Below, one piece after another: positions 1-26,395 of a stretch of 26,395 nucleotides of DNA. The first letter of the stretch is position 1; every line of letters begins with the position of its first letter. The stretch covers positions 1 to 26,395 of the IMG/VR virus record IMGVR_UViG_3300018790_000007; one strand, 5' to 3'. A program made the position numbers and the translations under genes. Origin of the DNA: a virus. The notes under the pieces are model-generated. The model had not been told where the DNA came from. It did not search any database and saw only the letters and a program-made list of their open reading frames with translations.

Positions 1-2268
1 AGGACTCACCTCAGCCTTCAGTCCACCAAACTCATCGAACAAAGCACCTGTCCTAGACTCTGTCTCTGCCCTCCATAGACCCCTGATCTCAGCCTGTACA
101 CCAGCTGGGAGCGTGTCCCAGAAGGCGTGGCCAAGCTCATGGATCATTTCCCTGCGAGCCATAGGCATCGTGGCGAGCTTGTCCGACAAGAAGACCATCG
201 CCTTCCTTCCGTCCGAAGCCCGCTTGTAGTAGGCAACAGCACCCTTTGGAACCTGACCAGATTCAATTAAAGGAGTGATGTCACCCACCTCAAAAGTGAT
301 GGCATTGCGTAGGGCTGGAGATGAGATGCTGTTCCACAGGTTCTGGAAGCCTTGGACAAGCGAGAGCTTCTGAGATGCGCTTGGCGGTGTGTTGCGCTCG
401 GAAGCTAGGATGTATCCCTCTGGTCTTGCCGTTAGTCCACGAAGCTCAGTCTCCCGCATCCCGATCATACGATTAAGTCGGGCTACCCTCTGCGAGGTCT
501 CCTGCTTATTCTCGATCTTGTTACCCTCTGAGTCGTACCTGATAACTTCTCTAGCCGTGTTAGGATCGTACTCGGTTGTGCCAGCGTTAGGGTTTTCGCC
601 GACAAGGATCTGCCTTGCGAGTACACCCTCACGGATCTTGTAAAGCCGTTCGATCTCATTGCTAAGAACAACCTGACGAGCCACGCCACGATCATCTCGT
701 GACACGGATTCTGGGATGATCTGATTGTCTGGGAGAAGTGTTTGATCTGTAACCCTGCCAAGCTGCATCTCACGCTGGGCTTCTGCGATCAGCCTGCGAT
801 CCATCTCCTGCTCTGTCTCTAGGCCAAACTCTTTTGCGATACTGCTGGTTGGAGAGATGATGCGACCCGTGAACTGGGATCGTGTCGCAGTCCTCGGATC
901 TGCTGGGCTAGTGATTGGGTTTAGAAGGGGGCTGTCATCTGTTACGTCACGAACCCTGACTGGCTCACCCGTCCTGAACTCTGCCTCCCACAAAAGACCT
1001 TGAGGGGTATGGAAAGTAAATGTCTCTGTATTGTTTCCATCCGCATCCTGACTAACGCTACGACCAAGGGGTACGCTATTGATCGCAGGGTTCTGGCCAA
1101 TGTCTGGCACTTCTCCAGCAAGCCGATCCCCGAACACAGTCTTGGGGGTTGAGGTTGTCTCAGTTTCCCCAGTCTCAATATCAATCCTCTGCTGTGTGGT
1201 TGTGTTAGCGTTTCTTGCTGCCTCAGTAATCTGTGTCAGTCGTTCTGGAGTTAGTGATGCAGCTAGGTCTGCTTTGCTCTTAAGCTCGTCGGATAGTTTG
1301 TCAGCATAGAAAGCCTCGTTATCACGGGTGATTGCATTCACACCGCCACCGATCAGTCCTCCAGTTACGAGTCCTACCGCACCAGACTGCAGTGCCCCAT
1401 CCATGATTCCCCTGTTCGGATCGTACCCAGCAAACTTAGAGGCAACGAAGTTGTTGGCCATCTGGGCACCAGTCTCCTGTAAGAACTCTTCGGTAGCCCC
1501 CCTGACCACACCACGAAGGATGGATCTCTTGGCAATTCCAGCCGTTAATCTACCAGCAAGACCACCAAGAGGTATTGCCTCTGTCAGTCCGATAGCACCG
1601 CCAGCTAGGGATGATGCCCTCGAAGTAAACTCGTTTGCACCTGCCTGCTTCGCCTCTTCATAGATTGATCCAGCGTTTGTTGCAGCTCCAAGCACAGCTG
1701 CTGTACCAAGTCCGACACCAGTTACTATAGCTGCTGGAGCTTCAGCTGGAACTGCTGCTGCTGCAGCTGCAGCCACACCAAAGAACCCCAGCGCACTTCC
1801 AAGACCTTGGGGCAGTAGGGTATTAATGAAGTCATTGCGTAGGCGAGGATCTTCGATGCCAGTTGTCTGCTTAACACTCTCGTCGATATCCTGTGCGATC
1901 TTATAGATATCACGCTCAGTGACTGGAGTGTTGTCATCGTAGTTTCCGAGAGACTCGCCAATGGCTTGCTGGGCTAGGGCAGCTGCCTTGAAGGCTGATG
2001 TGAAAGTTCCAGATGCGCCCTTGTAGATATTGCCAAGGAATGCAGATCCACGCTCAACCGCACCGAGGTCACCCAGCGCATCCTGCGATGCAATCTTTAC
2101 AAACTCGTCGGAAGCCTGACCAACTTCCTTTTCATCTCTAGGCTCAACCTGCGTGTAATACTCCTGAACGTACTGGGAGTACTTGTTGATCGTATCTACT
2201 TTACCCTCGGTGGGTAATTCTTCGTACCCTACTTGGGCTTTTATGTCATCCCAAGGTGTGATCGCCAT
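1..2268 (-). CDS. Giant internal/ejected virion protein with HELGH metallopeptidase motif (3' end cut by window)
   Basis: This frame is open for 756 codons from ATG at 2268 to base 1 with no stop, so only the N-terminal part is visible. The start lies 2 nt after the stop of the upstream gene. Residues about 151-250 are Ala/Gly-rich and hydrophobic. They are followed by EEFLQETGAQ (about 260-269) and a second Gly-rich stretch (about 291-312). At residues 710-714 is HELGH in the context MIHELGHAFW, the zincin HExxH motif with two zinc histidines and the catalytic Glu. The third zinc ligand would lie downstream of the visible part. Known: very large phage proteins at the end of internal-virion clusters can be packaged and ejected with the DNA (T7 gp16; the polyvalent proteins, some with metallopeptidase domains). 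Inferred: this is such a protein. The frame and the motif are certain; the ejected role is a moderate inference. Confidence 0.85.
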   Translation of the reverse strand, partial: MAITPWDDIKAQVGYEELPTEGKVDTINKYSQYVQEYYTQVEPRDEKEVGQASDEFVKIASQDALGDLGAVERGSAFLGNIYKGASGTFTSAFKAAALAQQAIGESLGNYDDNTPVTERDIYKIAQDIDESVKQTTGIEDPRLRNDFINTLLPQGLGSALGFFGVAAAAAAAVPAEAPAAIVTGVGLGTAAVLGAATNAGSIYEEAKQAGANEFTSRASSLAGGAIGLTEAIPLGGLAGRLTAGIAKRSILRGVVRGATEEFLQETGAQMANNFVASKFAGYDPNRGIMDGALQSGAVGLVTGGLIGGGVNAITRDNEAFYADKLSDELKSKADLAASLTPERLTQITEAARNANTTTQQRIDIETGETETTSTPKTVFGDRLAGEVPDIGQNPAINSVPLGRSVSQDADGNNTETFTFHTPQGLLWEAEFRTGEPVRVRDVTDDSPLLNPITSPADPRTATRSQFTGRIISPTSSIAKEFGLETEQEMDRRLIAEAQREMQLGRVTDQTLLPDNQIIPESVSRDDRGVARQVVLSNEIERLYKIREGVLARQILVGENPNAGTTEYDPNTAREVIRYDSEGNKIENKQETSQRVARLNRMIGMRETELRGLTARPEGYILASERNTPPSASQKLSLVQGFQNLWNSISSPALRNAITFEVGDITPLIESGQVPKGAVAYYKRASDGRKAMVFLSDKLATMPMARREMIHELGHAFWDTLPAGVQAEIRGLWRAETESRTGALFDEFGGLKAEVSP

Positions 2269-4969: not shown

Positions 4970-6574
4970 TCAAGTGACTAGGTATGGCTGCAGGTATGCG
5001 GATATGGACATGCCACGGACGGCCAGATACCCAGAGGCCGAGCTGACCCTGAACATGATCTCCCTGAAGTAGTCCAGATCGATCATAGTGTCACCATGAG
5101 TCTGGATTGGCGGGAAGCCGTCCATGTACTGCGGAAGGTTGAACGGCAGGTTAAGAGGTGAGCTTGCTGTTGGCACAGTGCTGAGTGTCTCCCAGTCCCC
5201 GTTGTCCATTGAGTATTCAATCGTGGCAACGGCATCTGAGTTGTAGAACTCGATCTCGCTCTTGTTACCCAGCTTTCTCGAGCCAGCTTCGGCGAATGTC
5301 ATTCCTCTTGTGGCAATGCTCGTCGGGATTCCGACCCCGCCAGCGTTCGGCGTGGATGCGTCATCAGAATATGTAAGAGCAGTTGAAGAGCCAAAGTTAT
5401 GTCCCCTTCTCCACATGTAAATCCTCCCGCTTCGATCTCCAATCACGAGGCCAGTAAACAGTGCAGTTGCAGCAACTGTATTCGGTAGCGTGATCCCGTT
5501 GGATGCCTGAACTCCAGAATACGGATAGAACCTGCCAGACCACTCACCAACCCAGCATTTGTTGGATGTATCAAAAGCAACTGTGATAGTACCACCTGTC
5601 ACCGTCTTTGCGGAAAGGATCACCGTGTTCTCGTGGAATACCATCGAGATTTCGCTGGGCTGGGTAATATCGATCTGCTTGATCTTATCTTCGATTGGTA
5701 GCGATATCGGAAGACTGACCGCTTGCTCCTGTCCTTGGAGTGTACGACTTAGAAGCCGAACTCCGTCACGGGACATAAACATAACATCAGATCCGACCCT
5801 AAGCGTTGCCGACTGGCTCAGGGCACCGTTGGCGTTCTCAACTGTTTCGACTGAGAAACCACCAGCAGATGTCTGGGTAATACCACTTACAACAAATACC
5901 CTGTTCTCCTTAAATACTGCGATACGGTCACCCGTCCACTCGACGATTGCAGTAATCGGAGAAGAGTCTCCACCTATCCTAATTGCATTTGTTGCGGTAT
6001 CAAAGTTTGATGTCAGGAAATCTCCCACATAAAGCGTGTCTGGGTTACTTGCGGTTACGGCAAATAGCCTTCCCCTCGTACTGATCAGTCTATTAATCCC
6101 AGCGGGTGCTGATACGGCTCCAGAAGTTGCTATAGTTGTTACGGCAGTGCCGTCCCAGAACTTAAGCTGACCACCAGCAGATCCGTCGATAAAGTAGAGC
6201 TTATCTGCTACCGTAGCCGTATAGACCCTGTTACCAGATGTATATGCAGATGATGCGCCCGTCTGCCATCCCGTAGCCCAAGTTGAAAGGTACTTAAGAT
6301 CCCCGCCAAAGAATGCAACCAGCTGTGTTGTGCTTGTATTCCTGTAGGAGGCAAGACCGCTAATATAGGAGTTAACCCCAGTGGAAGGAGTGAGAACAAG
6401 GCCAAGCCTAGTATGAACAAGCCCGTTCTCGTCTAACTCGACATTGACCAGACTTGTACACTGGTTCTCACCCAAGATCCTCGCCTGAGTGTTGGAGTCT
6501 TCCCCACCGCTAAACTGCCTCTGCCCGTCGAAGACCAGAGGCGTATCTAGGGCTTCGTCAAAAATAATAGGCAT
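4970..6574 (-). CDS. Tail hub/nozzle beta-propeller-like protein, 534 aa
   Basis: This large, almost all-beta protein shows successive blade-like strands: LYFIDG near residue 130, GRLFAV near 170, DRIAVFKENRVFVV near 215-230, DVMFMSRDGVRLL near 265, and GRIYMWRRG near 375. Each pairs a short hydrophobic strand with an Asp/Gly turn. That arrangement is characteristic of podovirus tail-hub proteins such as P22 gp10 and the T7 gp12 nozzle, which close the bottom of the tail. Its position immediately after the adaptor-like gene (3 nt gap) and before the internal-protein genes fits. I saw no enzymatic residues. The exact family (gp10-like or gp12-like) cannot be settled by eye, but a tail-nozzle or hub role is well supported. 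Confidence 0.8.
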   Translation of the reverse strand: MPIIFDEALDTPLVFDGQRQFSGGEDSNTQARILGENQCTSLVNVELDENGLVHTRLGLVLTPSTGVNSYISGLASYRNTSTTQLVAFFGGDLKYLSTWATGWQTGASSAYTSGNRVYTATVADKLYFIDGSAGGQLKFWDGTAVTTIATSGAVSAPAGINRLISTRGRLFAVTASNPDTLYVGDFLTSNFDTATNAIRIGGDSSPITAIVEWTGDRIAVFKENRVFVVSGITQTSAGGFSVETVENANGALSQSATLRVGSDVMFMSRDGVRLLSRTLQGQEQAVSLPISLPIEDKIKQIDITQPSEISMVFHENTVILSAKTVTGGTITVAFDTSNKCWVGEWSGRFYPYSGVQASNGITLPNTVAATALFTGLVIGDRSGRIYMWRRGHNFGSSTALTYSDDASTPNAGGVGIPTSIATRGMTFAEAGSRKLGNKSEIEFYNSDAVATIEYSMDNGDWETLSTVPTASSPLNLPFNLPQYMDGFPPIQTHGDTMIDLDYFREIMFRVSSASGYLAVRGMSISAYLQPYLVT

Positions 6575-11307: not shown

Positions 11308-11709
11308 TTATAAACCTAAAAGAGACCAGCTGGGACTTTCGCAGTCAGCCCTCCGTACCTGCATGGTCTTCTTTCGCCCCAGTTTAGCTATTGGCATAAT
11401 CATCCAAGACCCAAACGGCTCAAGCCATATGGCCATATGATCAATATCATGTTTTTTGTATACGGCCTTCTTAGATGTCTTATGGCTTACGCATACCCTG
11501 CACCTACTTGTAGACCTAGATCCAACCCTGTTTAACACTGTCATCCAGCTACTTTTAACCTGAACCTTGTAGATTCTACCCCTTGAAACAACCAGCCAAT
11601 CGTATGGTTGGGAGTCTCCGATAGGCTTACAGGGCACCCCGCCCCTCTTGAGAACCTCCAAGCAGAACATCTGTTCGGCCAGCTCGCCGAACTTCTTGCC
11701 CTCTTTCAC
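11308..11709 (-). CDS. PD-(D/E)XK endonuclease of the group I intron type, 133 aa
   Basis: The order of motifs fits the PD-(D/E)XK family typified by intron nuclease I-Ssp6803I (Pfam PDDEXK_5-like). A first helix KKFGELAEQMFCLEVLKRGG is followed by GDSQPYDWLVV with catalytic Asp37 (about), then IYKVQVKSS with the Q-x-K triplet at about 50-52. DIDHMAIWLEPFGSWMIMP matches the conserved closing strands. Length is normal and no intron features flank it, so it looks free-standing. It lies between the 88-aa basic-protein gene and the fibers, among late genes. It could be a free-standing homing nuclease or a host-type nuclease captured for DNA processing. The family call is strong; the role is uncertain. 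Confidence 0.8.
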   Translation of the reverse strand: MKEGKKFGELAEQMFCLEVLKRGGVPCKPIGDSQPYDWLVVSRGRIYKVQVKSSWMTVLNRVGSRSTSRCRVCVSHKTSKKAVYKKHDIDHMAIWLEPFGSWMIMPIAKLGRKKTMQVRRADCESPSWSLLGL

Positions 11710-14830: not shown

Positions 14831-15355
14831 TTATTTTTGGCGGGGTATCAGCCCTGCTTTTATCTTAGTTTTCTTTTGGGTCTTCTGTACGACTGGCTCC
14901 TGCTTCGGCTCGTTTCGCTCTAGCCTTGCAAGGTCTCTCCAGTCCTTGAAGTACCCGTCCTGCAGATGAGGACGCTCCCATGTAAGTGCCTGAAGGTTAT
15001 AGAGTTTCCCGTTCTCAATCCCCATGCCGTACTTATGGATGTTTCCCCAGTCTGCCTCGTATCCGTCCTCTTTAACTTTTAATACGGGAACCCAATCAAT
15101 CGCCCTTCCGTAGCAATGAAAGCTCTGGGGCACAGGCAAGCCCATCGCATTTGTGACGATGCGCCCAGCCTTTGTCCTACCCTGCTCATACAGATCCTGC
15201 TGCTCCTGTGGTGTCCTGTGACCGCAGTAAACATACGGAATCACACCGCCCGCAATAACCGCATCCCTCCATGCAGCCACCCGAGCTGCGAAGGTAGGCT
15301 CTAATCCCTTGAGGATATCCTGATATATGGACTCTATCTTCGCACGGGTGATCAT
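14831..15355 (-). CDS. Endolysin, peptidase M15 (D-Ala-D-Ala carboxypeptidase / L-alanoyl-D-glutamate peptidase type), 174 aa
   Basis: The zinc-site pattern of M15 peptidases is complete. SFHCYGRAID (about 78-87) supplies His80 and Asp87. WERPHLQ (about 126-132) gives the catalytic Glu127 and the third ligand His130. YCGHRTPQEQQDLYEQGRTK is the usual substrate-side block ahead of them. The length is normal for one catalytic domain without a cell-wall anchor. The C-terminus is very basic (QKTQKKTKIKAGLIPRQK). It cuts peptidoglycan stem peptides or cross-links in the periplasm during lysis and depends on a holin for release, as there is no signal peptide. It overlaps the lipoprotein gene by ATGA at 15352-15355. 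Confidence 0.92.
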   Translation of the reverse strand: MITRAKIESIYQDILKGLEPTFAARVAAWRDAVIAGGVIPYVYCGHRTPQEQQDLYEQGRTKAGRIVTNAMGLPVPQSFHCYGRAIDWVPVLKVKEDGYEADWGNIHKYGMGIENGKLYNLQALTWERPHLQDGYFKDWRDLARLERNEPKQEPVVQKTQKKTKIKAGLIPRQK

Positions 15356-18029: not shown

Positions 18030-18269
18030 TTATCCTTTGCTGAAGAACTTGGTCTTGATCAACTCCCAAGATATGGAGACAGCCGTGCCGACGATGGCAG
18101 CTGCTAAGTAGAAATGTCCCTTGAGTTTCTCGAGTGCGGTCACCCGATTCACGAGATCCCCGTAGTTAGAGAGGCTCCGCTCAAGCATGGAACACAGGCC
18201 AACCTGACGCTCTTCCATTCTTGCGAGCCGTTCCCTGATATCCGATATGTCAACGTCTATGATATTCAC
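18030..18269 (-). CDS. Coiled-coil plus membrane-anchor protein (XhlA/holin-accessory-like), 79 aa
   Basis: Residues about 5-46 form a heptad-rich helix (DIRERLARMEERQVGLCSML, VNRVTALEKLKG). A single membrane span follows (about 52-69, FYLAAAIVGTAVSISWELI), with a basic end KTKFFSKG. This topology resembles hemolysin XhlA-like lysis accessory proteins and other small phage membrane proteins. The ATG overlaps the portal gene's stop as ATGA, so translation is coupled to portal. A lysis-related or tail-channel role is possible, but its distance from the endolysin makes the assignment tentative. Confidence 0.72.
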   Translation of the reverse strand: MNIIDVDISDIRERLARMEERQVGLCSMLERSLSNYGDLVNRVTALEKLKGHFYLAAAIVGTAVSISWELIKTKFFSKG

Positions 18270-20104
18270 TGCGGTAACATCTGCTGGAACTGAGCATTCT
18301 TGGTCTCAGTCTGCATAGCCTTCATAATCTGTGCGCCGATCTGCTTGGCGAGGTTCGGGTTGGTCTGCGAAAGGAACTGAATGTGTTGCTGTAAGTGCTG
18401 GGTGTAGGCAGCACCGCTATCCTGAGCGAGCTGCTGTCCACGCTGACCAGCCAACTGCAGTCGATCCATATGGATCTGAACATGCACCTCGTGATCGTCG
18501 GCAGGCTCAACAGCCACAGCACCGAAGCCTTGGTCGAGCAACAGATTCTCGCTTCCAGCTTCTTCAGCCTGCATCTGCTTCTTGAGCTGCGGATCGATCA
18601 ACATGCGGTTGACCAAGTGAGGATCGTCCACCTCCAGCAGATCCTTGCGGAGTTCTGGCTGGTTAATGTACGGATCGTTACGGAGGGTCTGGAACCGCAC
18701 CAAAGCCTTCTGGTACTGCATGACTCGGTTCACACCGTCAGCACTGCCCGAAGGTTTGATCTGGTAATCAAAGATGATCGCCTCTGCGGGCACAGCCGAG
18801 AACTGGTTCTGGTATTCAAAGAGAAGCTGGTCGTGGGCGTACTCAACTAGGATTGCATATGCCTGCTTGTAGATTTCGCTCAACGCCAGCCTGAAAAGTT
18901 TAATGCGGAGATCTGTGTTCACCCCCATCAGCTGTCCGATATTCTGCACTTCGGTTGCCGTGCGGGGCTTGGAGCTTCCGAGTCTTCCCTGCGTCAGGCC
19001 GAAGTCAGGCATCGACACCAAGTACTCAGAGACCTGACGCATCTGCACCATCTCCTGATCAAAGCTGATCGGGGGCTGGGGCATGAGTACTGGCTTAACT
19101 CCCGTGGGCAAGAGAACCCCTGTGCCGAATTTTATATTGTTCACATTGGGTATGTCTTGATCAGAGGAAAACATCGGTGAGTTGTAGAGGCTCATCGCAT
19201 CAGCCTTGGCGTTCATGGTCTTGGTCAAAGCAGCTTCAAACGCTGCAACCGTTTCACAAACTCCACGGCTCGAATAAAAACCTTTGTCTGGAGTAAACTC
19301 CAGCATGCACGGCACGAACGGCATCTGCCCGTGGGCATAGGGAAGCTCGAACTTGGGGCGAATAGGTTCGTCAGGAGCCTGCGGGCTGAAGGTCTCCACG
19401 ATGATCTTCCCCTTGTCATCCCGATAGTAGCACTCCCAGATAATGATGTTATCCCGCATGCTTCCCTCGGTCAGACCCTGCTTGCCTAGCTTGTGCTGAT
19501 CATACGAGCGAACCCCAGCACCAGCCGAGTTCCCCTCGCCTTTGATCCGCTTGATAAAATCATCGTCCTGTTTGTACGCCTCGTTGCGACGATATTGGCC
19601 TTCAGAAATTTCCATGATGTGGCAGATCCGATCACAGCTGTCCATGTCCTTGGTGTAGTACGGGAACACAAGGTACATCGGGTTAACTGCATCAAACTTG
19701 ACCGACCTGTTGGCCTCATCCCAAGAGGTCTTCATAAACGAGATTCCGCAACGCAGCATGGCCGATACATAGACCATCATCTCGGTTTCAAAATTAGAAC
19801 GCTCACGCAGCATGTAGTTGAACCAGCTCTCCGCTGCGTAGCGCAGAGACTGCATCTGGGGTTTGCGTGGGGTAAAGCTGGCCAGATTCTCAGCTGAGTA
19901 AATCTGGTTTATGTAAAACGGTACGAACTTATTGATGATCGAGTTCGCTAAGGGGTAGTGAAGGTCGGCTGCGTTCGGCCAAGGTTTACGCTTACGACGA
20001 AGTCCACCATTGCACATGGTGTACCAAACCTTCTGCCGATCCTCCCAAGTAGTTCGCTTTTTAAGGTCATCGCAAAAAGCATCGTACAGCTCTTGCGTGG
20101 TCAT
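18266..20104 (-). CDS. Portal protein, 612 aa
   Basis: Length, position directly after the large terminase (TAA then ATG, no gap) and fold pattern mark it as the portal, the ring at the unique head vertex through which DNA enters and leaves. Features include a helical N-terminus with WPNAADLHYPLANSIINKFV and FYINQIYSAENLASFTPR (about 40-80). The stem region FMKTSWDEANRSVKFDAVNP and the clip/crown region with PFVPCMLEFTPDKGFYSSRG follow. GSSKPRTATEVQNIGQLMGV is the phage-portal block before the long stem helix (LRIKLFRLALSEIYKQAYAI). The C-terminus is long and Gln-rich (QMQAEEAG, then TQHLQQHIQFLSQT), typical of P22-like portals with a barrel extension. Confidence 0.88.
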   Translation of the reverse strand: MTTQELYDAFCDDLKKRTTWEDRQKVWYTMCNGGLRRKRKPWPNAADLHYPLANSIINKFVPFYINQIYSAENLASFTPRKPQMQSLRYAAESWFNYMLRERSNFETEMMVYVSAMLRCGISFMKTSWDEANRSVKFDAVNPMYLVFPYYTKDMDSCDRICHIMEISEGQYRRNEAYKQDDDFIKRIKGEGNSAGAGVRSYDQHKLGKQGLTEGSMRDNIIIWECYYRDDKGKIIVETFSPQAPDEPIRPKFELPYAHGQMPFVPCMLEFTPDKGFYSSRGVCETVAAFEAALTKTMNAKADAMSLYNSPMFSSDQDIPNVNNIKFGTGVLLPTGVKPVLMPQPPISFDQEMVQMRQVSEYLVSMPDFGLTQGRLGSSKPRTATEVQNIGQLMGVNTDLRIKLFRLALSEIYKQAYAILVEYAHDQLLFEYQNQFSAVPAEAIIFDYQIKPSGSADGVNRVMQYQKALVRFQTLRNDPYINQPELRKDLLEVDDPHLVNRMLIDPQLKKQMQAEEAGSENLLLDQGFGAVAVEPADDHEVHVQIHMDRLQLAGQRGQQLAQDSGAAYTQHLQQHIQFLSQTNPNLAKQIGAQIMKAMQTETKNAQFQQMLPQ

Positions 20105-21529
20105 TTAGTCCCCAGCGTCGAAGCCACTTCTGGCCTCTTCAAAGTTAGTTTGGATTGCATTGCCAAATACATCTGTCTGCAAATGACTACCACCAGCATC
20201 ATTTGAGGTCAAGCTCGGTCTGGTCTTGACATAAGCCCAGATGGCTCCAGCAGCTGCATCCGCACGATCTGGACTGCTTCCACCTGTCCTTTGCTTATAT
20301 TCAGCCTTGGACTCCAGCTTAATGCTTCCGTTAGATGTGCAAAAGAACCTGCGGGTACACAGCTGACCATCCATGATGTCATCCTTGGGCAGGATCACTC
20401 CCCTGTCCTCAATCATCTTGCCAGCCGTAAACAACATCTCTGAAGCCTTGTTGGCGTACCCAGCCAAACCAGCCGTACCAAAGTTCACACGGTTGACGCT
20501 GTACCCCTGCTCGTCCATGCGCCTGATCATGGGCGACCCGATCCCCCCGTTGTCAGCCCAGACCAGCTTGGGGTTAACCTGAAAAGCCCGAAGCTCCCTG
20601 ATCACCCGTCCGACGGTACGCATCTCGTCCCGATCCTTAATAATAATAAGGGGCAACAGCTTGTTCCCGTCCATGATGGCCACGGCAGTCTCATCAACCC
20701 CTGCCCCACCCCAGTCGATAAAAGCCACCCTATCCATCGGAAAGTGGGTTGGGGGTGTAGCCCTGCAGTCATGGATCTTGGTTTCCGAGATGACGGTCTC
20801 GTTATCAGCCTCATCCACAAACTCGTTGTGGATCATGCTCCTGACCAGCGGGTGGTCATCCCCATACAGCTCCTTAAGTCTTCTAATCGACTCGTCCGTA
20901 ATATGTGGGCATTGGCCGATAGGAATAGTGAAAGTCTTCCAGAACTTAGCATGTTCCCTAAAGCACTTGGCAAAGAAGCTGTTTGCTGAACCCGTGCTGC
21001 TAATAGCTAACCAGCGGTTAGGCTGGGTGCGTTCACCTGCATGCCAGATCTCTGCAGGTATGGACTTGGCCTCGTCATAGATCAACATCAGGTTGCCCTT
21101 GCCACCCGTGGTGCTGCCCTCTGGATGCCACCCCTCCATCCGCTGGGGTTCGTCCGTGGTAAAGGCTACCGCCCTACCGTTAATCGGGCTGATCAGCTCG
21201 TTGGAGTTAACCGTCCAGCCCTTCAGCTTAGAGGCGTACTTGTGTACGGTGGCAAACAAGCCTGACTTAATCTGTCTGCCTACGTTAGAAGTTACGATCA
21301 CATAGCTGTTAGGAAATACAGCACAGTGCCAGATGATGGCTGGTACCACCAAGAAGCTGGACTTGCCCGATCCGTTGGGTGCCCTGACAGCTACTCTGCC
21401 ACCAGCATCAAGTGCATCCATGCACTGGATCTGCCAAGGGTAGAGGCTGTCCATCCCAAGGTAGTGGCTGGAGAACCCCGCCAGTGTGGACAGGAACTTC
21501 AGCTTCTGGAGTTCATTCATTTGGGACAT
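20105..21529 (-). CDS. terL: Terminase large subunit (ATPase and nuclease), 474 aa
   Basis: All expected sites are visible. Walker A is APNGSGKSS at about 50-58 and Walker B is LMLIYDEA at about 147-154 with Asp152-Glu153. The nuclease domain carries IDWGG (Asp272), WADNGG (Asp326) and SPDRADA (Asp421, Asp424), the three acidic clusters of RNase-H-like terminase nucleases. The protein pumps DNA through the portal and cuts the concatemer. The start at 21529 is supported by AAGGAG seven bases upstream; M4 is the alternative. It overlaps the basic 76-aa gene by 17 nt and abuts portal. Length is normal and nothing appears broken. Confidence 0.93.
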   Translation of the reverse strand: MSQMNELQKLKFLSTLAGFSSHYLGMDSLYPWQIQCMDALDAGGRVAVRAPNGSGKSSFLVVPAIIWHCAVFPNSYVIVTSNVGRQIKSGLFATVHKYASKLKGWTVNSNELISPINGRAVAFTTDEPQRMEGWHPEGSTTGGKGNLMLIYDEAKSIPAEIWHAGERTQPNRWLAISSTGSANSFFAKCFREHAKFWKTFTIPIGQCPHITDESIRRLKELYGDDHPLVRSMIHNEFVDEADNETVISETKIHDCRATPPTHFPMDRVAFIDWGGAGVDETAVAIMDGNKLLPLIIIKDRDEMRTVGRVIRELRAFQVNPKLVWADNGGIGSPMIRRMDEQGYSVNRVNFGTAGLAGYANKASEMLFTAGKMIEDRGVILPKDDIMDGQLCTRRFFCTSNGSIKLESKAEYKQRTGGSSPDRADAAAGAIWAYVKTRPSLTSNDAGGSHLQTDVFGNAIQTNFEEARSGFDAGD

Positions 21530-25510: not shown

Positions 25511-26395
25511 ATGAACAACAACATCAACCAAATCAAAATCGGAAGCCTTGCGAGCGATCTCGCAACGGCATTCAAAAACAAAATCTCTTGCCTGCTCATC
25601 GGGCGGGCGGGAGTCGGCAAAACTGCCATCGTGCAGGACGCTTGGAAGCGGGTCGCTTCCGAGATCGGTGGTGACCCCGAGGTCATCGTCGACACACCCG
25701 CCTGCTCTGATCCGACTGACTACAAAGGTCTGCCAGTCGTGATCGACGGGTCAGCAGTGTTCGATCCAATCGGCCTGCTACGCCGACTGCTCAAAGCGAA
25801 GAAGCCCACGCTGTGCTTCCTCGATGACTTGGGGCAAGCCAGTGAGGCGGTGCAGAAAGGTCTGCAACACATCATCTGGGCACGAGAGGTCGAGGGCAAA
25901 CGCATCCCCGACTGTGTGCAGTTCGTCGGAGCGACGAATGCCCGCACGGATCGGGCTGGCGTGGGCTGGCTCATCTCCCCGTTGATCGGGCGATTCGATG
26001 CGACCATCGAAGTTCTGCCCGACCTCAACCACTGGCTGGGCTGGGCTGGCACGGCTGGAATCTCCCCCGAGATTCTCAGCTTCCTCCAGTTCCGACCTGA
26101 TCGGTTCGCTGAAGAACCCACCGCCGAGTTCGCCAAGAAGGTGGCGTGTCCTCGCTCGTGGGAGGCAGTTGACAGACTCGTGAAGGCAAAGCTCACCTCT
26201 CCCGCTTGGCTCACCGCCTCGCTCGGAACGGCTGGCGTTGACCTCCACGGATTCCTCTCGGTCTACGAGGGGCTGGCAACTCTGCCCGACGAGGTACTTG
26301 CGAACCCGACGAAGGCCAGTGTGCCGACCAAGCCCGAGGTTCGTTGGGCTTTGATCGGTGCGTTGACTGCGAGGCTGAAGGCTGACGCTAAGAAC
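25511..26395 (+). CDS. MoxR/CobS-like AAA+ ATPase (3' end cut by window)
   Basis: The frame is open for 295 codons from ATG 25511 to the window's end. Walker A is GRAGVGKT (31-38) and Walker B is LCFLDDLG (101-108), with Asp-Asp in place of the usual Asp-Glu. Sensor 1 is GATN (140-143), and PLIGRFDATIEV (157-168) carries the probable arginine finger. The block FLDDLGQASEAVQ recurs in phage MoxR/CobS-like ATPases. Such ATPases remodel protein partners, typically with a von Willebrand factor A protein. It follows DUF3150 and a 48-aa gene. A partner may lie beyond the right edge. Its C-terminus is not visible. Confidence 0.85.
   Translation, partial: MNNNINQIKIGSLASDLATAFKNKISCLLIGRAGVGKTAIVQDAWKRVASEIGGDPEVIVDTPACSDPTDYKGLPVVIDGSAVFDPIGLLRRLLKAKKPTLCFLDDLGQASEAVQKGLQHIIWAREVEGKRIPDCVQFVGATNARTDRAGVGWLISPLIGRFDATIEVLPDLNHWLGWAGTAGISPEILSFLQFRPDRFAEEPTAEFAKKVACPRSWEAVDRLVKAKLTSPAWLTASLGTAGVDLHGFLSVYEGLATLPDEVLANPTKASVPTKPEVRWALIGALTARLKADAKN

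What the first reader, a model, noticed from the sequence alone, without database searches (positions are those of the whole stretch)
1..2268. Very large ejected-protein candidate with a zinc-metallopeptidase motif at the window edge
The last gene of the internal-virion cluster is open for 756 codons without a stop and carries HELGH at residues 710-714. Its hydrophobic Ala/Gly regions with EEFLQETGAQ between them resemble polyvalent and ejected phage proteins, some of which carry metallopeptidase domains. In T7-like phages the equivalent protein carries a lytic transglycosylase. A peptidase here would imply that the phage injects a protease into the host or uses it during entry or maturation.
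Basis: partly seen in the sequence, partly recalled or inferred. Interest (0 to 1): 0.72.

Follow-up and report, generated by a model that had tools for sequence, protein, structure and literature searches.

The report
Giant modular phage protein with built-in protease
The window's edge cuts a 2,555-residue phage protein that is probably carried in the virus particle and injected into the bacterium; it holds a zinc-protease domain followed by exchangeable protein modules whose borders nearly all carry the same short tag, S-(T)-R-G, a possible cutting site.

Summary
Confirmed and extended. The minus-strand gene (window 2268 down to 1) is open for 756 codons with HELGH at 710-714. A 99.98%-identical contig shows the full protein: 2,555 residues. 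The missing third zinc ligand lies just beyond the window edge (E764 in QEFFSE). It is invariant in relatives at 62-74% identity, and a partial AlphaFold2 model matches the anthrax lethal factor protease domain best (weakly, Z 5.2). The C-terminal 900 residues are related to a Cellulophaga phage protein detected in virions by MS/MS. It is therefore a phage-type 'polyvalent' ejection protein, not a T7 gp16 equivalent.

What I did not find described: between constant ends, near-identical phages carry different payload modules. 62 of 73 homology breakpoints (about 5 expected; pairs not independent) lie within 20 residues of an S-[TIVAR]-R-G tag. Tag codons vary freely (serine by TCN and AGC, arginine by CGN and AGR), so selection acts on the peptide, not on DNA. 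My reading, not proven: the zincin, or another protease, cuts at the tags to release modules. New variant of a known kind.

The parts
1..2268 (-). Residues 1-756 of a 2,555-residue polyvalent ejection protein; the rest is seen only in L002:12269-17668
   Evidence: Open frame; full length in L002 and relatives; 99.98% DNA identity to L002
979..2268 (-). N-terminal domain, residues 1-430, with Ala/Gly-rich hydrophobic segments; related to the N-terminal domain of N4-type virion RNA polymerases
   Evidence: phrog_2206 E 6e-9 and phrog_10691 E 6e-9 in L020, similar in L112; reversed control best 0.026, locally shuffled control nothing; hydropathy
1345..1512 (-). Residues 253-308 including EEFLQETGAQ (260-269, window 1462-1491): the stretch that aligns with N4 vRNAP residues 384-437
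   Evidence: hhalign E 2e-4, probability 47%; hmmsearch 2e-4 against N4 vRNAP
1..408 (-). Zincin-like metallopeptidase domain, N-terminal part (residues 621-756); it continues beyond the window to about residue 830
   Evidence: More conserved than the N-terminal domain (64-74% against 49-51%); AF2 core and VIA-align match; weak ATLF and Reprolysin_3 hits in relatives
127..141 (-). HELGH zinc-binding motif, residues 710-714; third ligand candidate E764 lies 8 residues beyond the window edge (L002:12290-12292)
   Evidence: Direct reading; alignments

Best explanation
It is a phage-type polyvalent ejection protein. The chassis is an N-terminal domain of the N4-vRNAP kind (probably membrane-inserting), then a gluzincin-type metallopeptidase (HELGH 710-714, E764), then two to four exchangeable payload modules, then a constant C-terminal region of about 900 residues that belongs to a widespread virion protein family. 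The protein is packaged in the head and expelled into the host as beads on a string (inferred by homology). Modules are joined by short linkers of consensus P-E-V-x-A-S-T-R-G-E-Q. I propose that the linkers are recognised as peptides, most simply as cleavage sites (by the embedded zincin or another protease) that release the modules as separate effectors, and that the same linkers serve as tolerant seams at which phages swap modules. Shown here: full length, domain order, ligand conservation, module swaps, the tag at module borders, and protein-level constraint on the tag. Inferred: virion location, ejection, zinc binding, and cleavage at the tag. Probabilities: polyvalent ejection protein with a genuine zincin fold 0.9; tag a functional processing site 0.4; the embedded zincin is the enzyme that cuts it 0.3.
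For: Full-length gene. HELGH and QEFFSE invariant across L002, L003, L005, L007, L008, L020, L110 and L112. AF2 core at pLDDT 57-91 over HELGH through E764; five of the seven top VIA-align rows, including the top four, are the lethal factor catalytic domain (Z 5.2, 81 residues, rmsd 3.8). N-terminal relation to N4 vRNAP; N4 vRNAP is expelled last, its N-terminal domain is likely membrane-spanning and it carries an HExxH domain (PMC12633501). C-terminal relation to phi18:3 gp123, annotated from MS/MS, and to a protein of Pseudoalteromonas phage Y3 whose neighbour carries ddrB-ParB, ART-PolyVal, LPD1 and LPD5. Module exchange: L002 and L003 are 97% identical on both sides of a completely different 560-residue stretch and of a 134-residue insertion; the same modules recur in other combinations in L017, L018, L020, L021 and L112. 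62 of 73 internal homology ends lie within 20 residues of a tag, 4.8 expected. STRG occurs 3 times in L002 against 0.06 expected; 23 distinct tag instances, with five Ser and five Arg codons among those tallied. Iyer et al. 2017 predicted zincin processing of polyvalent proteins on general grounds (PMC5512222).
Against: No proteomics of this phage. The AF2 model is poor overall (mean pLDDT 38); the structural match is only Z 5.2, with one superfamily at the top but a low margin, and Foldseek alone gave nothing. Pfam and PHROGs do not recognise the zincin above threshold. N4 vRNAP, which also carries a zincin, is packaged uncut (PMC5512222). One module border (M4/M3 in L112) has no tag. The breakpoint pairs are not independent: about eight to ten distinct borders underlie the 73. 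Some tag conservation could reflect duplication of linkers together with modules.
Confidence: 0.72

Rival explanations
1. The tags are only flexible linkers and recombination seams. No protease reads them; they persist because short homologous DNA at module ends lets phages swap modules by recombination, and the full protein works uncut as in N4.
For: Borders coincide with tags; the L003 insertion is flanked by a direct repeat of the tag region, and the L003 border at 1424 combines a left flank like one L002 border with a right flank like another. N4 vRNAP is packaged uncut (PMC5512222).
Against: The tag is conserved as peptide, not as DNA: Ser by TCN and AGC, Arg by CGN and AGR, all four Gly codons. 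A pure recombination seam should conserve DNA, and a mere flexible linker should not keep Ser-x-Arg-Gly.
Confidence: 0.35
2. The zincin is an effector that cleaves host proteins after injection (for example defence factors), and the tags are unrelated to it.
For: The fold matches an effector protease family; Iyer et al. list host targeting as an alternative (PMC5512222).
Against: The zincin belongs to the constant part present in every full-length relative that keeps this N-terminus, more conserved than the N-terminal domain, while the presumed effectors are the parts that vary; effectors under host pressure would be expected to vary.
Confidence: 0.2
3. The zincin is degenerate or purely structural, as may be the case for the HExxH domain of N4 vRNAP, serving packaging rather than proteolysis.
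For: In N4 the region with the HExxH domain is needed for encapsidation and no cleavage is seen (PMC5512222; PMC12633501 shows the C-terminal domain regulating the polymerase).
Against: All three presumed zinc ligands and the catalytic Glu are invariant in all relatives.
Confidence: 0.2
4. Chance HExxH in a helix of a structural protein (no zincin at all).
For: HExxH can occur by chance in proteins of this size; no library model reaches its cut-off.
Against: Helix-E764 pattern, invariance, the zincin order of strands and helices in the model, and repeated top matches to one zincin.
Confidence: 0.06

Closest known systems
Phage-type polyvalent proteins with a zincin-like MPTase (Iyer et al. 2017, PMC5512222)
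   Same: Giant multidomain protein at the end of the virion gene cluster, zincin plus unrelated modules (a GNAT in L018; ART, ParB and methylase domains in distant relatives), phage context
   Different: This zincin matches no library model above cut-off; modules are exchanged between near-identical phages; the S-x-R-G border tag is not described in the passages of that paper searched
Escherichia phage N4 virion RNA polymerase gp50 (Schitoviridae)
   Same: Related N-terminal domain, an HExxH domain, position as last virion gene, beads-on-a-string giant ejected protein (PMC12633501)
   Different: No RNA polymerase domain found; the zincin lies upstream of the payload, not downstream; the C-terminal region is unrelated by hhalign
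Cellulophaga phage phi18:3 gp123 / phi19:3 gp129 (phrog_22602, virion structural protein)
   Same: C-terminal 770 residues homologous (24-25% identity); phi18:3 protein annotated from MS/MS
   Different: phi19:3 gp129 (1,871 aa) has no HExxH motif; phi18:3 was not scanned for one
Anthrax lethal factor protease domain (ATLF family), named only as a structural yardstick
   Same: Best structural match to the zincin core, Z 5.2, 17% identity; weak Pfam ATLF hit in L020
   Different: No sequence relation above cut-off, different protein and context; fold resemblance says nothing about its targets
DarB-like giant proteins of Bcep22-like podoviruses and phage P1
   Same: Weak N-terminal profile match (phrog_10089, E 4.5e-5); JC1 gp69 (4,515 aa) found in virions by MS (PMC9144972)
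   Different: P1 DarB carries a DNA methylase-helicase payload (PMC5512222); no such family was found here

Membership tests
Zincin-like metallopeptidase (gluzincin type) | HExxH in a helix | tested here: met
   HELGH 710-714, in a predicted helix
Zincin-like metallopeptidase (gluzincin type) | Third ligand Glu in a second downstream helix | tested here: met
   E764 in QEFFSE, invariant in 8 loci down to 62% identity, in a predicted helix; actual zinc binding not testable
Zincin-like metallopeptidase (gluzincin type) | Zincin fold | tested here: inconclusive
   Partial model, VIA-align Z 5.2 to lethal factor; Foldseek alone not significant
Zincin-like metallopeptidase (gluzincin type) | Proteolytic activity | not testable with these tools
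   Needs purified protein
Phage-type polyvalent protein | Several domains of unrelated activity in one giant polypeptide | tested here: met
   Zincin, DUF7178 in L003, L020 and L112 (only sub-threshold DUF7178 in the window's own protein), L5 gp82-like, weak GNAT (L018), second HExxH module (L017, L020, L112); the activities themselves are mostly unknown
Phage-type polyvalent protein | Carries domains on the published polyvalent list | tested here: inconclusive
   A zincin and, in one relative, a weak GNAT only; named polyvalent Pfam domains (ddrB-ParB, ART-PolyVal, LPD1/5/23) occur in phages or proteins sharing the C-terminus (Y3, L080), not in this protein
Phage-type polyvalent protein | Packaged in the virion and injected | not tested
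   Inferred from homologues: phi18:3 MS/MS, JC1 (PMC9144972), N4 vRNAP (PMC12633501)
N4-type virion RNA polymerase | N-terminal vRNAP domain | tested here: met
   phrog_2206 E 6e-9 in relatives L020 and L112; N4 hhalign E 2e-4
N4-type virion RNA polymerase | Single-subunit RNA polymerase domain | tested here: not met
   No polymerase family in Pfam at E<=1; phrog_2206 matched only over its N-terminus
T7 gp16-like internal virion protein | Lytic transglycosylase domain | tested here: not met
   No such family in Pfam, PHROGs or NCBIfam for the full protein

The most novel reading that the evidence does not exclude
The S-x-R-G linkers are cleavage sites of the protein's own zincin: a self-cutting, cassette-built payload polyprotein that the phage injects, in which any module fitted with the tag at both ends can be swapped in. 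A P-[DE]-[IV]-R-[FY]-S-R linker in distant relatives (9 found, 0.85 expected) would be the same device in other phages, giving the processing site that the polyvalent-protein hypothesis lacked.
Probability: 0.3. Interest if true: 0.82.

Novelty: new variant of a known kind. Interest (0 to 1): 0.6.

Why it matters
It has been proposed since 2017 that embedded zincins cut polyvalent proteins into working units, but no cutting site was proposed in the papers I could read. A recurring peptide tag that marks nearly every module border gives a concrete, cheap test of that proposal. The exchange of whole payload modules between otherwise near-identical phages also shows in real populations how the set of proteins a phage injects changes, and it gives a natural way to find new modules (whatever lies between two tags).

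Tried and rejected
T7 gp16 transglycosylase: no hit. Chance HExxH: rejected on ligand conservation and model. Module chimerism by misassembly: unlikely, because modules recur in independent contigs, M4 in L003, L018 and L112, M6 in L017, L020 and L112. DNA-level recombination site as sole explanation: tag codons are not conserved. 'Virion-associated RNA polymerase' label of StenR_269, whose C-terminus is homologous (hhalign E 1e-18): not used, as no Pfam or PHROG polymerase match supports the label. Tag as a substrate in other virion proteins: S-x-R-G occurs only once each in two window proteins (4970-6574 and 18266-20104), not informative. AF2 of modules M2+M3 failed (mean pLDDT 32), so no fold for the payload. 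Foldseek on the zincin model gave nothing significant. hhalign of this zincin with the other zincins of the family matched only the HExxH helix. The zincin has no relative in the phage collection nor, by two conserved peptides, in 85,000 genomes. The C-terminal region is not the N4 C2 region by hhalign.

Full report
Observation. The finding gives no strand; the gene is on the minus strand, ATG at 2268, open to base 1, 756 codons, HELGH at residues 710-714. The window is an IMG/VR fragment. A tblastn-confirmed scan found the same virus as contig L002 (99.98% over 12.3 kb, one gap) and nine more relatives at 88-97%. L002 continues the frame to 2,555 residues; L003, L005 and L008 give 2,701, 2,551 and 2,555. 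Nothing in the phage collection matches the first 756 residues by tblastn.

The peptidase. HELGH and QEFFSER are invariant in L020, L110 and L112, whose zincin region is 62-74% identical while the N-terminal domain is only about 50%. Pfam gives only weak zincin hits, in relatives: ATLF E 0.19 in L020 and Reprolysin_3 E 0.083 in L112, both across the right region. AF2 on eight sequences is poor overall (mean pLDDT 38) but the stretch from HELGH through E764 reaches 57-91, with two strands (themselves of low confidence), the HExxH helix and the Glu helix in zincin order. Foldseek was not significant; VIA-align puts the anthrax lethal factor catalytic domain at ranks 1-4 (Z 5.2, rmsd 3.8, 81 residues, model 103-202). 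Iyer et al. reached the same superfamily for the N4 vRNAP zincin (PMC5512222).

The N-terminal domain. Residues about 60-400 match three giant virion or injected protein families in PHROGs (E 6e-8, 4.5e-5, 4.9e-4). In the relatives L020 and L112 the N4-type virion RNA polymerase family rises to E 6e-9, while a reversed copy gives at best 0.026 and a locally shuffled copy nothing. Compared directly with N4 gp50, the stretch around EEFLQETGAQ aligns with vRNAP 384-437 (hhalign E 2e-4, probability 47%; hmmsearch 2e-4). Each comparison is modest alone; together, with controls, they support homology. N4 vRNAP is ejected, its N-terminal domain is thought to span the membrane and stay with the ejectosome (PMC12633501), and it is also the last gene of its virion cluster.

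The C-terminal region. Residues about 1,876-2,529 match phrog_22602 'virion structural protein' (E 4e-37). tblastn finds the region from about 1,670 to 2,540 at 24-29% in Cellulophaga, Pelagibacter and Pseudoalteromonas phages; the phi18:3 protein is annotated from MS/MS. A profile scan found at least 556 viral stretches that encode it. The complete proteins carrying it run to about 1,250-4,000 residues, many with some HExxH domain of several different types, and some with, or next to, the classic polyvalent Pfam domains. So the constant C-terminus is a shared chassis of phage polyvalent proteins.

Modules and tags. L002 and L003 are 97% identical over residues 1-861 and over the last 900, but L002 residues 862-1425 are unrelated to the matching stretch of L003, and L003 has 134 extra residues at 1651. 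Module orders, with M numbers of my own, are: L002, L005, L008: N|SIRG|M1|STRG|M2|STRG|M3|STRG|C. L003: N|SIRG|M4|STRG|M3|STRG|M5|STRG|C. L017 (5' cut): M2|STRG|M6|STRG|C. L018 (5' cut): M4|STRG|M7, GNAT-like|STRG|STRG|M8|STRG|C. L020: N|SVRG|M1|SARG|M9|SRRG|M6|STRG|STRG|C. L021 (5' cut): M2|SVRG|C. L112 (3' cut): N|SARG|M4, M3 without tag between|STRG|M6|STRG|C. M4 and M9 are DUF7178 (E 7e-16 and 3e-27) and M2 is weakly DUF7178-like (E 0.06 in L002, 6e-4 in L005), so different versions of one domain type sit in the first slots; M3 is weakly L5 gp82-like; M6 is a second HExxH module.

Of 73 internal ends of local alignments between ten family members, 62 lie within 20 residues of a tag; uniform placement would give 4.8. 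Pairs share events, so this is about eight to ten distinct borders, still far from chance. STRG occurs three times in L002 against 0.06 expected; the wider tag four times against 0.12 in shuffles. The extended consensus is P-E-V-x-A-S-T-R-G-E-Q. In 19 tag instances whose codons were tallied, serine is written with five codons, including TCN and AGC that are at least two changes apart, arginine with five and glycine with four. This is conservation of a peptide. It argues for recognition as protein, hence a processing site as first guess, and against a pure DNA recombination seam; the modules are nevertheless exchanged there, and the border at 1424 in L003 looks like a hybrid of two tag flanks.

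Distant relatives with the same C-terminus have a comparable linker, roughly P-[DE]-[IV]-R-[FY]-S-R (9 against 0.85 in shuffles, seven proteins, two of them sharing the same linker). The pattern was refined after looking at examples, so the enrichment is suggestive only. In L080 one lies five residues after an ART-PolyVal domain. The polyvalent-protein paper mentions no such linker in the passages searched, and literature searches found none; the library lacks most subscription journals, so absence of a report is not proven.

Mechanism and verdict. Most likely: head-packaged, expelled late through the ejection channel, anchored by the N-terminal domain, with the zincin or another protease cutting at the tags to free the modules. 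Steps shown: architecture, ligand conservation, swaps, tags, peptide-level constraint. Steps inferred: virion location, ejection, metal binding, cleavage. The counter-example is N4 vRNAP, which stays uncut.

Noticed in passing
L002:18383-19375 (minus), beyond the window: Phage integrase (Pfam E 1e-17) downstream of the giant gene on the opposite strand: the phage may be temperate.
   Followed up: no
L017, L020, L112 (module M6): A second HExxH module (HEVAH/HETAH/HETIH) bounded by tags; third ligand not identified.
   Followed up: partly
L018 residues 335-440: A GNAT-like acetyltransferase module between two STRG tags (Pfam E 0.004, below cut-off).
   Followed up: no
L003, L020, L112; weakly L002, L005: Different DUF7178-type domains occupy the first module slots; function unknown.
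   Followed up: partly
L080, L043, L045, L057, L063, L071, L032: P-[DE]-[IV]-R-[FY]-S-R-like linkers in distant polyvalent proteins, enriched about tenfold over shuffles.
   Followed up: partly
window 4970-6574: One ORF of 534 residues here is split into 424 + 110 residues in near-identical L002; the two contigs differ by a single gap over the whole overlap, probably an assembly or sequencing error.
   Followed up: no
window 11308-11709: PD-(D/E)XK endonuclease (PDDEXK_5, E 1e-15) inside the structural gene region.
   Followed up: no
window 14831-15355: VanY/M15-like peptidase, a likely endolysin (weak Pfam hit).
   Followed up: no
window 25511-26395: AAA ATPase (AAA_5 above its cut-off) on the plus strand.
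   Followed up: no
window 20105-21529: Terminase closest, at about 31%, to Akkermansia phages; the phage is far from any cultured relative.
   Followed up: no
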